DNA of 12,610 nucleotides from JBMFOH01 sp049969715 [NCBI: bacterium] (GTDB lineage: Bacteria > DUMJ01). The notes beneath the pieces were generated by a model. That model was not told where the DNA came from and made no database searches. It saw nothing but the letters and a program-made list of their open reading frames with translations. The stretch covers positions 1-12,610 of the forward strand of contig JBMFOH010000040.1 of the NCBI GenBank assembly GCA_049969715.1, in the 5' to 3' direction. Both the position numbers and the translations under genes were made by a program. Below are positions 3,291 to 12,448 of the stretch, piece by piece (position 1 is the first letter of the stretch; every line of letters begins with the position of its first letter).

Positions 3291-4811
3291 ATGAATCCGA
3301 ATATTCAAGTAACTGATAATTTAGAAGAGCTCTTAGGTGTTCTTCCCCCTTCTCTTAAAGAAGTGGTTAGTGAGATGGAGGGGCTAGAGGACCTCATAGA
3401 GATAGTGTTTGATTTAGGGAGAGAACCTGAGGCAAGGTTCCCAAATAGAGGGGAATTGCTCTCTGAAAATCTAATAACTAGAGATGATATAAACTACGTA
3501 GTTTCTAAGGTGGGAAGTTTTGATGGGGATAACAGGGCAGGTATACCTAGGACTTTGCACCGTATCTCCTGTATAAGGAATAGAAAGAGTGAGATAATAG
3601 GACTTACCTTAAGGGTTGGAAGAGCTATATATGGGACAGTGGATATAGTAAGGGATGTAATTGAGTCAGGAAAGAGTATCCTCCTTTTGGGAAAACCCGG
3701 GGTAGGTAAGACTACTATGTTAAGGGAGGTAGCAAGAATCCTAAGTGATGAGCTTAAGAAGCGTGTAGTAGTGGTAGATACATCCAATGAGATTGGAGGA
3801 GATGGAGATATCCCTCATCCTGCTATTGGAAGGGCAAGGAGGATGCAGGTTTCATCTCCAGAGAAACAACATGATGTAATGATAGAAGCAGTGGAAAACC
3901 ATATGCCTGAAGTAATAGTGATAGATGAAATTGGAACAGAACTCGAGGCAAAGGCGGCAAGAACGATAGCAGAAAGAGGGGTTCAGCTTATAGGAACTGC
4001 TCATGGAATAAATCTAGAGAATCTTTTGTTAAACCCTACCCTATCAGATTTGGTAGGAGGGCTCCATGTGGTTACATTAAGTGATGAGGAGGCTAAGAAG
4101 AGAGGAACTCAAAAGACAGTACTAGAAAGAAAGGCTCCTCCTACCTTTGATGTGGTAATAGAGATAAGGGATAGGGATACCTTAGCGATACACCACAATG
4201 TCTCTCAAGTGATAGATAGTATGCTGAGAGGATATACCCCTAGACCAGAGATTAGGATAAGAAAGGAAGATGGATATAAGGTAATAGAAGAGGCTGAAGA
4301 GATTATCTCTATTGATAAGGATTATGAAACATCTTCGAGAGAGAAAGGAATCTTCAGGATATATCCCTTCGGGATAAGTAGAAATAGACTTGAAAAATCA
4401 ATAAGGGAATTAGATATTCCAGCCCTTATCACCAAAAGGTTAGATGAAGCAGACTTTATCCTTACTCTGACATCACATGAAAAACGAGAGGGAGATAAAT
4501 TGATAGCAAGAGCACATAGAGATATTCCCATTCATACTGTAAAGAGTAATACCTTGATCCAGATAAAAAGATTTCTAAGGGACTATTTTTTAGGTGAAAA
4601 TGAAGAAGATACTGAGGATTTAGAATATAAAAAACTTATCTCTGAGATAGATGAGGGAATAAAGAAGGTAATGGAGACGTCAAGTCCGGTAGAACTTTCT
4701 CCTAAGAATGCAAGGATTAGGAGATTGCAGCATGAGATTATAGAGAGGTATCAATTTCATTCTGATAGTATAGGGATAGAACCATATCGGAGAGTAAGGA
4801 TATTACCTTAA
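3291..4811 (+). CDS. AAA ATPase with C-terminal R3H domain (Ycf45 / SpoIIIAA-like)
   Basis: Seen: an N-terminal domain (about 1-110) of the kind found before SpoIIIAA-type ATPases, Walker A GKPGVGKTT (134-142), Walker B VIVIDEIG (208-215), a sensor-like GTAHG (235-239), an acidic lysine-rich linker, and a C-terminal helix-rich end with RLQHEIIERYQFHSDSIG (about 475-492) that fits an R3H single-stranded nucleic-acid-binding domain. The 506 residues match the long bacterial/plastid Ycf45 type rather than the shorter sporulation SpoIIIAA, so a sporulation role should not be assumed. The biochemical function of this family is not established; binding of RNA or single-stranded DNA powered by ATP is inferred from the domains. 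ATG follows AGAGGTG by 10 bases. Its TAA overlaps the ATG of tmk (TAATG), implying coupled translation. Confidence 0.85.
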   Translation: MNPNIQVTDNLEELLGVLPPSLKEVVSEMEGLEDLIEIVFDLGREPEARFPNRGELLSENLITRDDINYVVSKVGSFDGDNRAGIPRTLHRISCIRNRKSEIIGLTLRVGRAIYGTVDIVRDVIESGKSILLLGKPGVGKTTMLREVARILSDELKKRVVVVDTSNEIGGDGDIPHPAIGRARRMQVSSPEKQHDVMIEAVENHMPEVIVIDEIGTELEAKAARTIAERGVQLIGTAHGINLENLLLNPTLSDLVGGLHVVTLSDEEAKKRGTQKTVLERKAPPTFDVVIEIRDRDTLAIHHNVSQVIDSMLRGYTPRPEIRIRKEDGYKVIEEAEEIISIDKDYETSSREKGIFRIYPFGISRNRLEKSIRELDIPALITKRLDEADFILTLTSHEKREGDKLIARAHRDIPIHTVKSNTLIQIKRFLRDYFLGENEEDTEDLEYKKLISEIDEGIKKVMETSSPVELSPKNARIRRLQHEIIERYQFHSDSIGIEPYRRVRILP

Positions 4812-7414: not shown

Positions 7415-8335
7415 TTGTTTTTATATACTGTAAGGTTACTGGAGTTTAAGACAGAGATAAGCATATATTATTCAGAAGAGGAGTTGTCTCCAAGGGATAC
7501 AGTAGTAGTAATGTATAAAGATAAGGAATATATTGGGGAAGTAATATACCGTCTTGGAGAGGTCCAAGATCAATCGTTTAGTCACTTAAAGAGGATAGTA
7601 AGAAAGGCATCTCCGGAAGAGGAGTCATTACTAAGAGAAAGAGAGTTAAAAAAGAAGGAGATCTTTTACATAGTAAAAGAAAGGATTAATGTCCATGAAC
7701 TTCCTATGAAGCTTATCAGGGTAGATTTTGCCGATAATCCTGAGCGGGTAGTATGCTTCTTTGTGGCTGAGGGAAGGATAGATTTCAGAGAATTGGTAAA
7801 GGACCTGGCACATAGACTTATGAATAGGGTGGAGCTCCGTCAGATAGGGGTAAGAGATGAGATAAAGATTGTCAAAGGAATAGGTCCATGTGGTAAGATA
7901 GCTTGTTGCTGTGAATTTTTAGAAGATTTCTCGCCTATCTCAGTGAGGATAGCAAAAGAACAAGGACTTATATTGAACCCTACAAAGATCTCTGGGTTAT
8001 GTGGAAGGCTTATGTGTTGTCTAAGGTTTGAGGCAGAATTTTATAGTGAAGTAATAAAGAATTTCCCAGAGATAGGAACTATGGTAAAGACAAAGATGGG
8101 GGATGGAAGGGTAGTGGGGATAAATGCTATAAAAAATACTGTGATAGTAGAATTTAAGAATGGATGGCAGAAAGAGATATCACTAAGTGATATTACTGGT
8201 GCCGAAGACCGGACTCGAACCGATACGGACGTAGGTCCACTGGATCCTGAATCCAGAGCGTCTACCAATTCCGCCACTTCGGCACAATCTCAATCATATT
8301 ATAATTTACCGCCAAATTTTGTCAAGGAGGAATAA
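7415..8335 (+). CDS. ricT: PSP1-domain protein RicT/YaaT with an antisense-tRNA-encoded tail
   Basis: RicT of B. subtilis works with RicA and RicF in a complex that stimulates RNase Y mRNA maturation and binds iron-sulfur clusters. Seen: PSP1 domain with the cysteine clusters GPCGKIACCCEF (158-168) and GLCGRLMCCLRFE (194-206), which match the family signature. TTG start is fixed by GGAGGTTA (7401-7408), one base after holB. The homologous protein ends near residue 260 (the B. subtilis protein has about 275). From residue 261 the frame runs through the complement of tRNA-Leu (to about residue 290) and then its promoter (291-306). This tail uses CGG, CGA, ACG, GCG and TCG codons that are rare elsewhere in the window and has no family counterpart. 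No stop codon interrupts the frame before 8333. RicA and RicF are not in the window. Confidence 0.92.
   Translation: MFLYTVRLLEFKTEISIYYSEEELSPRDTVVVMYKDKEYIGEVIYRLGEVQDQSFSHLKRIVRKASPEEESLLRERELKKKEIFYIVKERINVHELPMKLIRVDFADNPERVVCFFVAEGRIDFRELVKDLAHRLMNRVELRQIGVRDEIKIVKGIGPCGKIACCCEFLEDFSPISVRIAKEQGLILNPTKISGLCGRLMCCLRFEAEFYSEVIKNFPEIGTMVKTKMGDGRVVGINAIKNTVIVEFKNGWQKEISLSDITGAEDRTRTDTDVGPLDPESRASTNSATSAQSQSYYNLPPNFVKEE
8174..8193 (-). terminator. Possible weak terminator for tRNA-Leu
   Basis: Just past the tRNA 3' end on the - strand, ATATCAC-TTA-GTGATAT (8193-8177) forms a seven-pair hairpin and is followed by CTCTTTC, a poor U-run. It lies inside the ricT coding region. The stem is good, but the weak U-run means processing from a longer transcript is equally possible. 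Confidence 0.3.
8197..8283 (-). tRNA. tRNA-Leu (anticodon CAG), CCA encoded
   Basis: Read on the - strand, the 87 bases fold as a class II tRNA. The acceptor stem is GCCGAAG (8283-8277) with CTTCGGC (8207-8201). The D arm is GCG...CGC around AATTGGTAGA. The anticodon stem CTGGA/TCCAG encloses loop TTCAGGA, giving anticodon CAG, which reads CUG. The long variable arm GGAC-CTAC-GTCC is typical of leucine, and the T arm ATCGG/CCGGT has loop TTCGAGT. The 3' end is A (8200) followed by an encoded CCA (8199-8197). All stems pair, with one wobble in the T stem. The gene lies entirely antisense to the 3' part of ricT and is the only RNA gene seen in the window. It has its own promoter at 8298-8325. 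Confidence 0.97.
8298..8325 (-). promoter_or_regulatory. Promoter of tRNA-Leu
   Basis: On the - strand a perfect TTGACA (8325-8320), a 16-base spacer and a perfect TATAAT (8303-8298), ending 14 bases before the mature tRNA 5' base. Transcription would start about 6-7 bases before the tRNA, leaving almost no leader. The -35 box shares bases with AAGGAGG (8324-8330), the ribosome site of the sugar kinase gene on the other strand. Being consensus in both boxes and well placed makes this the best promoter in the window. Confidence 0.85.
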
Positions 8336-9943: not shown

Positions 9944-11242
9944 ATGGATCAGAGTGAAGCTCCATACTTTAATGCAATAATAGATTATATACAACAGAAG
10001 CCATTAAGATTCCATTATCCTGGACATAAAGGAAGATTAAGCTTATGGGACTTGACGGAACTTCCTCAAACAGATAATCTCTTCTTTCCTACTGGACCTC
10101 TGTTAAAGGCTCAAGAACTTGCAGCATTAGCATTTGGATCAGATCATACCTACTTTTTGACAAATGGAACTACACAGGGTATTCAGTCAGCATTTCTGAC
10201 GGCATTCAAAAAAGGAGACAAGATTATCCTTTCAAGATTCTCTCACAGGAGCATTATAGAAGGAGTTATTCTCTCTGGTACAGAACCTATATTTATAGAT
10301 GAAGATATAGATGAATGGGGTATCTATAAAAATATTCAGATAGCAGAACTTAAGGATATAAGTGGAGCGAAAGGATTAGTTATAACCAATCCAAACTATT
10401 TCGGATTGGTCTCTGAATTGAAAGACATAGTAGAATGGGCTCATAAAAAGAGGCTTGTAGTTATAGTAGACGAGGCTCATGGAGCTCATTTGCATTTTAA
10501 TAAGGAACTTCCTATATCCGGAGTAGATGCAAAGGCGGATATAACTATACAGAGTATGCATAAGATGGGAATTTCTCTAACCCCAGGTGCGTTGTTACAT
10601 GTAAAAGGAGACAAGATTGATATACATAGATTAGAGGAGAATATAAAGCTTCTATCAACGACTAGTCCATCTACCCTTATTCTGGCTTCTATCGATATAG
10701 GAAGAAGGATCTTGGCACTCTATGGAGAGGAAATACTGAATAGACTACTATCCTTTATAGAGAAATTTACGTATAAATTGAAAGAAGCGAACTCTAATCT
10801 AAGTATCTATCCGAATGCAGATAAGACAAAGCTGTTATTTTATGGATTAGACGGAGAAGAATTGAGTAGGATTCTATGGAAGGATTATAGAATCCAAGCA
10901 GAATTTTTTTCCACCACTTATTGCCTATTTATAATTTCGCTATTGGATAGCGAAGAGACTATATATAGATTGTATGATACATTAAAGTGTATAGAAGTGT
11001 CTCCTCCTAAAATTTTTAGTAAAATTCCAAGATATGATCTAGGTATACTCCCCTCTGATGCTTACTTTTCTAGTAAAGAGAGAAAAAAGACTATAGATGC
11101 TGTGGGGAGGATATCAGGGGAGGTTATTACCCAGTATCCACCAGGAGTCCCAATAGTAGTACCAGGGGCTATAATTACCCCTGACATTAGGGATTATCTT
11201 ATTTCAATAGGAAAGAGTGATATAGATGTTACTCTCCATTGA
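9944..11242 (+). CDS. Orn/Lys/Arg decarboxylase-family PLP enzyme (YaaO-like)
   Basis: Fold-type I basic amino acid decarboxylase family; members make putrescine, cadaverine or agmatine. Seen: HYPGHKGR (24-31), the DLTELPQTDNLFFPTGPLLKAQELAA block (36-61) typical of the family, FLTNGTTQGIQS (71-82), the cofactor Asp in VDEAHGAH (175-182), and the Schiff-base lysine Lys207 in QSMHKMGISLTPGALL. The C-terminal YPPGVPIVVPG is kept, with Ala in place of the Glu that usually follows (PGE). At 432 residues it is shorter than the usual 470-490 and lacks the inducible enzymes' N-terminal wing domain, as YaaO does. ATG follows AAAGGA closely. Its end overlaps the first deoxynucleoside kinase by 17 bases. 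The substrate cannot be chosen from sequence; arginine or lysine is likely. Confidence 0.86.
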   Translation: MDQSEAPYFNAIIDYIQQKPLRFHYPGHKGRLSLWDLTELPQTDNLFFPTGPLLKAQELAALAFGSDHTYFLTNGTTQGIQSAFLTAFKKGDKIILSRFSHRSIIEGVILSGTEPIFIDEDIDEWGIYKNIQIAELKDISGAKGLVITNPNYFGLVSELKDIVEWAHKKRLVVIVDEAHGAHLHFNKELPISGVDAKADITIQSMHKMGISLTPGALLHVKGDKIDIHRLEENIKLLSTTSPSTLILASIDIGRRILALYGEEILNRLLSFIEKFTYKLKEANSNLSIYPNADKTKLLFYGLDGEELSRILWKDYRIQAEFFSTTYCLFIISLLDSEETIYRLYDTLKCIEVSPPKIFSKIPRYDLGILPSDAYFSSKERKKTIDAVGRISGEVITQYPPGVPIVVPGAIITPDIRDYLISIGKSDIDVTLH

Positions 11243-11834
11243 AGGACCAATAGGAGTAGGTAAGACCTCTTTAACTAATATAATTGCTGAAAATCTTAGA
11301 GAGTTAAACTTTATCAAGATATACGAGCTATCTCAGAGGAATATCTATTTAGACAGATTTTATATTGATATTAAAAGATATGCATTTCCTACCCAGATAG
11401 AGTTTCTGATAAATAGATTCTGGCAGTGGAGGAAGATTCAGGATTTAAAAGGAAACGTTGTATGTGACTATTTCTTTTTCAAGGATGAGATCTTTGCCTG
11501 TATGAATCTAGAAGGAGAGGATATAAATCTCTATAGGAGAATATTTAATCTAATGGTTCATCATATCAAACCTCCTGATTATCTAGTGTATCTAACTGCC
11601 AGTCCTTCTACCCTTTTAGAAAGAATAAAAAGGAGAGGAAGGACATTTGAAGCGATGTTAAAGTTGGATTATCTGATTTCTCTGTGTAAATCTTATGAGG
11701 ATTATATATCTGGATATAAAGTCTCTCCCATATTAAAGATAGAGACAGACTCATTAGATTATGTAAATAGAAAAGAAGACCAAGAGTATATTATGTCAAA
11801 GATAAAGAGGTTTATCTTGTTAGGTGGTAAATGA
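11226..11834 (+). CDS. Deoxynucleoside kinase (dGK/dAK-like), first of a tandem pair
   Basis: Salvages deoxynucleosides to their monophosphates. Seen: P-loop EGPIGVGKTSL (6-16), Glu34 in IYELSQRN (32-39), RYAFPTQIEFLINRF (51-65), VVCDYFFFKDEIFA (78-91) with the family Asp, and a lid-like RIKRRGRTFE. In place of the DRS/DRT motif it has Asp-Tyr, a version seen in dGK-like bacterial kinases. The usual ENPF is altered to RNIY, so specificity may be shifted. It has 202 residues. It starts inside the decarboxylase gene (17-base overlap) and ends in an ATGA overlap with its partner. Confidence 0.87.
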   Translation: MLLSIEGPIGVGKTSLTNIIAENLRELNFIKIYELSQRNIYLDRFYIDIKRYAFPTQIEFLINRFWQWRKIQDLKGNVVCDYFFFKDEIFACMNLEGEDINLYRRIFNLMVHHIKPPDYLVYLTASPSTLLERIKRRGRTFEAMLKLDYLISLCKSYEDYISGYKVSPILKIETDSLDYVNRKEDQEYIMSKIKRFILLGGK

Positions 11835-12448
11835 AAACTAATAAGGATAAAAGAATTATCTTAGGACTTGCAGGGAATATAGGGGTTGGGAAGACATCAG
11901 TCCTAGAAAGATTAAGTATTAGATGGGGATGGGATCTCTATAAAGAGCCAGCTTCAGAAAATCCGTATCTAAAGCTCTATTATAGAGAACCAGAGAGATG
12001 GGGGCTCCATTCTCAAATCTATTTTCTAGTAAATAGATTTGAGGAAGAATTAAAGCTTAGTAGTCTCTCTAAATCTTATATCCTTGACAGGACCATTTAT
12101 GAAGATGGAGAAATCTTTGCCCGAGTAGCTTTAGGAGACGAGGAGTATAAAACATATTATAAGTTTTATAGATTGGCACAGAGATATCTCTGCAAACCAG
12201 ACCTTATAGTGTATCTAAAAGCTCCAGTAGATATACTTATTTCTCGTATTCGAAAGAGAAAGAGATTAGAAGAAAATAGCATATCTATAGAGTATCTAGC
12301 TAAACTCAATGAGCTTTATGAAGATTGGGCTAAAAGCTTTAAAAAAGCTCTTTTAGTTACCTATGACGCTACAGAAGATATAATAGATAACTTTGAAAAA
12401 CTAGCCAATTTTATAGAAGAATATTTAAAGGACTCCTCTTTCAAATAG
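11831..12448 (+). CDS. Deoxynucleoside kinase (dCK/dAK-like), second of a tandem pair
   Basis: Seen: P-loop GNIGVGKTS (15-23), LYKEPASENPYL (37-48), a standard deoxynucleoside-binding block, GLHSQIYFLVNRF (58-70), the DRT motif in ILDRTIYEDGEIFA (84-97) with Asp86 and Arg87, and a lid SRIRKRKR. All key residues are present. At 205 residues it is of normal length. It is clearly a paralogue of the preceding gene (shared YFLVNRF/EFLINRF and IFA blocks) but has the classical Asp-Arg motif, so the pair probably covers purine and pyrimidine deoxynucleosides, as Dgk and Dck do in B. subtilis. ATGA overlap suggests balanced translation. Its last 8 bases overlap the end of the transposase remnant frame on the other strand. 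Confidence 0.88.
   Translation: MKTNKDKRIILGLAGNIGVGKTSVLERLSIRWGWDLYKEPASENPYLKLYYREPERWGLHSQIYFLVNRFEEELKLSSLSKSYILDRTIYEDGEIFARVALGDEEYKTYYKFYRLAQRYLCKPDLIVYLKAPVDILISRIRKRKRLEENSISIEYLAKLNELYEDWAKSFKKALLVTYDATEDIIDNFEKLANFIEEYLKDSSFK

What the first reader, a model, noticed from the sequence alone, without database searches (positions are those of the whole stretch)
8195..8335. A complete tRNA-Leu gene nested antisense inside the 3' end of ricT
The ricT frame does not stop where its homologues end but continues, without a stop, through the full complement of tRNA-Leu(CAG) and its promoter, adding about 46 residues (AEDRTRTDTDVGPLDPESR and so on). The ricT mRNA would therefore carry a perfect antisense copy of the tRNA, and ribosomes would have to cross it. 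Stops exist in the two other frames just before the tRNA (TAA 8184-8186, TGA 8188-8190), so the original stop may have been lost by a single change or indel. The tail could be tolerated, degraded, or affect RicT.
Basis: partly seen in the sequence, partly recalled or inferred. Interest (0 to 1): 0.65.

Follow-up and report, generated by a model that had tools for sequence, protein, structure and literature searches.

The report
ricT gene running through antisense tRNA
In a little-known bacterial lineage, the ricT protein gene reads on without a stop across the reverse copy of a neighbouring tRNA-Leu gene up to the next gene; the extension is shared by all four genomes seen, and its extra tail is probably tolerated rather than needed.

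Summary
RicT (7415-8335) runs open through the complement of a complete tRNA-Leu(CAG) (8197-8283, minus) and its consensus promoter, ending 3 nt before the pfkB ATG and adding 46 residues. It is not an error or a one-off: all 3 genomes held of the closest lineage (RicT core identity 69-71%) carry the same tRNA there, with the frame open to a stop overlapping the pfkB ATG. In another phylum, 4 of 7 RicT-bearing genomes also have this isoacceptor antisense behind ricT, but ricT stops 9-24 nt before it. The read-through is thus a lineage-specific extension. Antisense tRNA frames are often open (119 of 261), and chance retention of the open frame is about 0.1-0.25. All four net length differences inside the frame are multiples of three, a modest hint of selection. 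The tail is modelled at low confidence, and B. subtilis RicT tolerates C-terminal tags (PMC10470536, passages). Most likely the tail is translated and tolerated, and ribosomes are handed to pfkB; selected coupling is the main rival. A new variant of gene overlap, of moderate interest.

The parts
7415..8335 (+). ricT, extended ORF of 306 codons (TTG start, TAA stop)
   Evidence: NF041131 and PSP1 matches; open frame
8195..8332 (+). 46-codon tail beyond the conserved RicT core, through the antisense tRNA and its promoter
   Evidence: residues 263-306 pLDDT under 50
8197..8283 (-). tRNA-Leu, anticodon CAG, with encoded CCA
   Evidence: ARAGORN, Rfam RF00005 55 bits
8298..8325 (-). tRNA promoter: -35 TTGACA (8320-8325), 16-nt spacer, -10 TATAAT (8298-8303), 14 nt before the tRNA
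   Evidence: 12 of 12 consensus positions; same spacer and hexamers in L001-L003
8324..8330 (+). Shine-Dalgarno AAGGAGG of pfkB, inside the RicT tail, sharing two bases with the tRNA -35 box
   Evidence: sequence; GGAGG kept in L001-L003
8339..9268 (+). pfkB-type hexose kinase gene, starting 3 nt after the RicT stop
   Evidence: TIGR03168 296.8 bits; gap 3 nt in the window, ATGA overlap in L001-L003

Best explanation
A convergent tRNA-Leu(CAG) gene sits directly behind ricT. In an ancestor of this lineage the ricT stop before the tRNA was lost or bypassed; the frame was then open across the antisense tRNA and its promoter, up to stops at the pfkB start. RicT is therefore made with a flexible tail of 46-53 residues. 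The tail is tolerated because the RicT C-terminus is a free end, and most of the stretch is held by the tRNA, its promoter and the pfkB Shine-Dalgarno, which limits new stops. As a side effect ribosomes cross the antisense tRNA and finish at the pfkB start. Shown: the anatomy, its presence in 4 of 4 genomes of the lineage, and another phylum where ricT stops before the same tRNA. Inferred: translation of the tail, tolerance, near-neutral retention, and that the stopping state is ancestral.
For: Frame open in window and in 3 of 3 lineage genomes. Four genomes of another phylum have the same antisense tRNA with ricT stopping 9, 10, 24 and 9 nt before it; in 3 of these 4 (L162, L163, L165) the frame behind the stop is open across the whole tRNA, so one lost stop would give such a tail. 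Antisense tRNA frames are often open, 119 of 261. Retention of the open frame by chance is about 0.09-0.25 in simulations at the rates seen at free sites. Conserved tail residues coincide with tRNA, -10 box and -35/Shine-Dalgarno. Tail pLDDT 25-41. C-terminally 3xFLAG-tagged RicT forms the Ric complex normally, as noted before with YFP (PMC10470536, passages). RicT C-termini vary: L014 and L165 have long tails of their own.
Against: All four net length differences between fixed anchors inside the frame are multiples of three (15 or 9, 6, 6 and 3 nt), while the one between Shine-Dalgarno and ATG is 2 nt: what a kept frame would give (about 0.012 at one in three each). Low pLDDT is weak evidence for disorder, because conserved core stretches 156-175 and 182-215 are also below 50. 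No expression data.
Confidence: 0.48

Rival explanations
1. The open frame is kept by selection as a translational bridge: ribosomes must cross the structured antisense tRNA so that the ricT-pfkB transcript is not cut or terminated, and to restart at pfkB, which has little room for a promoter of its own.
For: The ORF ends 3 nt before, or overlapping, the pfkB ATG in 4 of 4 genomes. Length differences within the frame are multiples of three, 4 of 4. Eight of the other nine junctions in the gene row lie between -17 and +10 nt, by first-start ORFs. Only one weak + strand promoter-like site, overlapping the pfkB start.
Against: L165 has the same geometry (tRNA 55 nt before the next ATG, TTGACA beside its ribosome-binding site) and ricT stops 9 nt before the tRNA. 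pfkB has a strong Shine-Dalgarno of its own. The TGA TAA at the pfkB start of L001-L003 follows from its coding sequence, so a stop there needs no selection. The mRNA fold is not unusual (z -1.48, 16 of 200 shuffles as stable).
Confidence: 0.33
2. The tail is not made in quantity: the mRNA is cut or transcription stops by collision with tRNA transcription, and pfkB is expressed otherwise.
For: The tRNA promoter is a perfect consensus facing ricT, so convergent transcription is likely.
Against: No terminator-like site was found on either strand between 8100 and 8400; no + strand promoter candidate for pfkB beyond one weak site.
Confidence: 0.12
3. The tail peptide itself serves RicT, for example in contacts with RicA, RicF or RNase Y.
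For: The tail is present in 4 of 4 genomes.
Against: Its conserved residues are those forced by tRNA, promoter and Shine-Dalgarno; no fold is predicted for it; absent from the other RicT sequences aligned (7 of 7). dN/dS there is uninformative.
Confidence: 0.05
4. Sequencing or assembly error.
For: No whole genome is held for the window.
Against: Three other assemblies have the same open frame with substitutions and in-frame length differences of their own.
Confidence: 0.02

Closest known systems
Prokaryotic overlapping genes that arise when a stop codon is lost (PMC3887535, PMC2478687: search listing with start of abstract only)
   Same: A 3' extension of one gene into its neighbour after loss of a stop.
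   Different: The neighbour is a complete tRNA gene with its promoter on the other strand, and the extension ends at the start of a third gene.
Spurious antisense-tRNA ORFs as collected in AntiFam (PMC9710616, passages)
   Same: The tail residues are an in-silico translation of an antisense tRNA.
   Different: Here they are the continuation of a bona fide conserved gene, present in four genomes, not a free-standing predicted ORF.
ricT followed by antisense tRNA-Leu(CAG) in the phylum of G041 (L161, L162, L163, L165)
   Same: Same gene, same isoacceptor, same orientation, nearly touching.
   Different: ricT stops 9-24 nt before the tRNA. The downstream genes differ: a SepF-like ORF follows in L148 (G041) and in L165 (my reading of the sequence, no family search run).

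Membership tests
RicT (YaaT) family | Match to the RicT family model over its cut-off | tested here: met
   NF041131, 247.5 bits against cut-off 70
RicT (YaaT) family | Conserved cysteines that bind the Fe-S clusters | tested here: inconclusive
   C159, C164, C165, C196, C201 and C202 are invariant in 11 rows; correspondence to B. subtilis C166/C167 (PMC6751060, passages) is inferred, no alignment to B. subtilis was made
tRNA-Leu gene | Complete tRNA with Leu anticodon, long variable arm, CCA and promoter | tested here: met
   variable-arm stem kept through paired changes, read by eye
Nested or overlapping gene pair (real overlap) | Both reading frame and tRNA kept across diverged relatives | tested here: met
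   window and 3 of 3 lineage genomes
Nested or overlapping gene pair (real overlap) | Overlapping coding part is translated | not testable with these tools
   needs peptides or ribosome profiling
Translational coupling | Stop of the first gene at or over the start of the second | tested here: met
   3-nt gap in the window, ATGA overlap in L001-L003
Translational coupling | Downstream expression depends on upstream translation | not testable with these tools
   reporter experiment needed

The most novel reading that the evidence does not exclude
A whole lineage, perhaps a candidate phylum, keeps a dual-use stretch in which one strand is a tRNA-Leu gene with its promoter and the other is a selected reading frame that carries ribosomes from ricT across the antisense tRNA into pfkB, so that tRNA evolution and a protein's C-terminus constrain each other.
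Probability: 0.3. Interest if true: 0.62.

Novelty: new variant of a known kind. Interest (0 to 1): 0.4.

Why it matters
Annotation rules commonly treat a coding sequence over a tRNA as an error (general knowledge; AntiFam was partly built by such a screen, PMC9710616, passage). This is a case, backed by four genomes, in which a bona fide gene does run across a complete tRNA gene. If the frame is selected, it is a natural test of how a tRNA and a protein end evolve together and how an operon copes with an antisense tRNA in its mRNA. If neutral, it shows how a lost stop beside a convergent tRNA can persist for long.

Tried and rejected
Sequencing error: rejected, 3 of 3 lineage genomes show the same.

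Purifying selection on the tail peptide by dN/dS: uninformative. The post-tRNA flank has only about 7-8 synonymous sites and is confounded by promoter and Shine-Dalgarno.

Neutral simulations: four versions, all told. let free sites evolve at synonymous-like rates (0.014-0.067 for three tips open). One search used flank divergence counted over all flank sites, promoter and Shine-Dalgarno included, and gave 0.68-0.72 for the tips and 0.44-0.52 for window against clade; that rate was too low. One search recounted free sites only (0.125-0.196 within L001-L003, 0.50-0.54 against the window) and gave products of 0.09-0.25. The odds of the selected-frame reading were raised slightly (from 0.27 to 0.33, novel case from 0.25 to 0.30) because of this recount. 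In L001-L003 a second frame is also open across the tRNA to pfkB and is closed only by stops before the tRNA, so openness across the tRNA is cheap.

The codon alignment can only show gaps in multiples of three; the length differences were therefore measured on DNA between fixed anchors. The first base of the tRNA falls at the same codon position in all four.

An unusual mRNA fold: not found (z -1.48).

Papers: eight searches (one search was on RicT) listed no paper whose title or abstract start describes a bacterial protein gene running through an antisense tRNA. The library holds open-licence papers only, and only PMC6751060, PMC9710616 and PMC10470536 were opened, for passages. Mitochondrial antisense genes (PMC3214167, PMC2907346) were seen in listings only.

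Full report
What is there. The ORF at 7415-8335 on the + strand is RicT (NF041131, 247.5 bits). Before it lie tmk, a mechanosensitive-channel gene, a cyclic-di-AMP receptor gene and holB; after it a pfkB-type kinase gene. On the minus strand, inside its last 141 bases, is a complete tRNA-Leu(CAG), 8197-8283, with encoded CCA. Its promoter, TTGACA-16-TATAAT (12 of 12), also lies in the ORF. The complement of the -35 box shares two bases with the AAGGAGG of pfkB, and the RicT stop TAA is 3 nt before the pfkB ATG. The tail is 46 residues.

Is it conserved? A scan of the species genome collection with the RicT core gave 19 loci. The three closest, L001-L003 (core identity 71, 71 and 69%), share the gene order over the stretch held and each carry tRNA-Leu(CAG) antisense at the same place. 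The other 16 of 19 loci have no tRNA in the stretch held, which is short for some (L010 ends 24 nt after its match). In all three the RicT frame stays open through the tRNA and ends in a TGA overlapping the pfkB ATG, with tails of 53, 52 and 50 residues. The phylum of G001 holds only these 3 genomes; the window's own taxonomy is not known. Of 59 genomes listed as relatives of G001, 43 have a RicT match, and all 43 loci were read for tRNAs (30, 13). Three are the nested cases, G041 has the same tRNA antisense just behind ricT, G039 has a same-strand tRNA-Arg, and 38 have none in the stretch held (about 1.5 kb or more on either side, less at contig ends; G020 holds under 170 nt behind ricT).

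Another phylum. The phylum of G041 has 9 genomes held, 7 with a RicT match. Its contig of 1,424,912 bases suggests Coprothermobacter proteolyticus; that is recalled, not from a call. In 4 of these 7 (L161, L162, L163, L165) tRNA-Leu(CAG) lies antisense behind ricT, and ricT stops 9, 10, 24 and 9 nt before it; in L164, L169 and L172 no tRNA was found. The neighbour thus recurs in two phyla, by common descent or independently, and the read-through was seen only in the window's lineage. In 3 of these 4 (L162, L163, L165) the frame behind the stop is open across the whole tRNA, so a single lost stop could make such a tail. L165 is the best control: its tRNA begins 55 nt before the next ATG, as in the window, its -35 TTGACA lies beside the ribosome-binding site of that gene, and yet ricT stops before the tRNA.

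Chance and selection. Of 261 antisense frames of 87 distinct tRNA sequences in hand, 119 are open. In G001 and G003, among 37 and 35 tRNAs read, the nested one is the only tRNA with more than 300 nt of a long ORF before it; the other spanning ORFs of 100 aa or more look like shadow ORFs or over-long starts. With free sites randomised, the window's tail stays open in 0.38-0.48 of trials. At the divergence seen at free sites (0.125-0.196 within L001-L003, 0.50-0.54 against the window), an open frame stays open in all tips and on both sides in about 0.09-0.25 of simulations. For comparison, four-fold sites of the core differ by 0.36-0.45 within L001-L003 and 0.58-0.69 against the window. Between fixed anchors the distances are: core to tRNA 2, 17, 17, 11 nt; tRNA to -10 box 14, 8, 8, 8; -10 to -35 box 16 throughout; -35 box to GGAGG 0, 3, 0, 0; GGAGG to ATG 8, 10, 10, 10 (order window, L001, L002, L003). 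All differences inside the frame are multiples of three. The one that is not lies where the window's stop falls and the frame no longer matters. Four of four has a probability of about 0.012 at one in three each; the cases are few and spacing may be held for other reasons. Together this is a modest hint that the frame is kept.

What the tail does. AlphaFold2 on 11 RicT sequences puts residues 261-306 at pLDDT 25-41, against 79-85 for residues 221-260. This is weak evidence for disorder: the overall model is modest (mean 63.7) and conserved core stretches 156-175 and 182-215 are also below 50. Seven RicT sequences without the tRNA, chosen for the alignment, end within about ten residues of the same point. 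RicT C-termini do vary: L014 and L165 carry long tails of their own. In B. subtilis, C-terminally 3xFLAG-tagged RicT forms the Ric complex normally, as noted before with YFP (PMC10470536, passages). A tail is therefore probably harmless. The residues kept between window and relatives coincide with the tRNA, the -10 box and the -35/Shine-Dalgarno, so no peptide function is indicated.

Mechanism. Shown: a tight gene row whose ricT frame runs across a convergent tRNA and its promoter to the pfkB start, in four genomes. Inferred: RicT is translated through, the tail is tolerated, and ribosomes arrive at the pfkB start. Whether that matters is open. Tight junctions in the row (8 of the other 9 between -17 and +10 nt, by first-start ORFs) and the in-frame lengths favour it; L165 speaks against its being needed. 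I put near-neutral tolerance at 0.48 and a selected bridge at 0.33.

Novelty. Eight paper searches listed nothing that describes a bacterial protein gene running through an antisense tRNA, in an open-licence library. The nearest kinds are overlaps from stop loss (listings) and the spurious antisense-tRNA ORFs screened into AntiFam (PMC9710616, passages). This is a new variant of gene overlap, of moderate interest.

Noticed in passing
L165 2386-2545: Same compact layout as the window (antisense tRNA-Leu(CAG), TTGACA beside the ribosome-binding site of the next gene, 55 nt from tRNA to ATG), but ricT stops 9 nt before the tRNA and the next ORF looks SepF-like.
   Followed up: partly
window 8176-8196: Behind the tRNA (minus strand) the window has a 7-bp palindrome ATATCAC-TTA-GTGATAT, whereas L001-L003 have a T-run directly after CCA; the tRNA trailer or terminator seems to differ.
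   Followed up: no
window 11226-12448: Two adjacent, slightly overlapping kinase-like genes (weak dTMP-kinase matches) that also match each other's counterparts in L001-L003 at 30-36%: probably a tandem duplication.
   Followed up: no
window 3291-4811: A 506-aa protein joining a SpoIIIAA-like ATPase, a PF25516 domain and an R3H domain.
   Followed up: no
L074 (G028), L064 (G053), L078 (G021): Long ORFs (426, 185 and 268 aa) that span a whole tRNA-Leu gene in the sense (L074, L064) or antisense (L078) direction; not examined further.
   Followed up: no
L161, L163: A tmRNA gene lies about 1 kb behind the tRNA-Leu(CAG) in this phylum, after ORFs that look like sepF and smpB.
   Followed up: no
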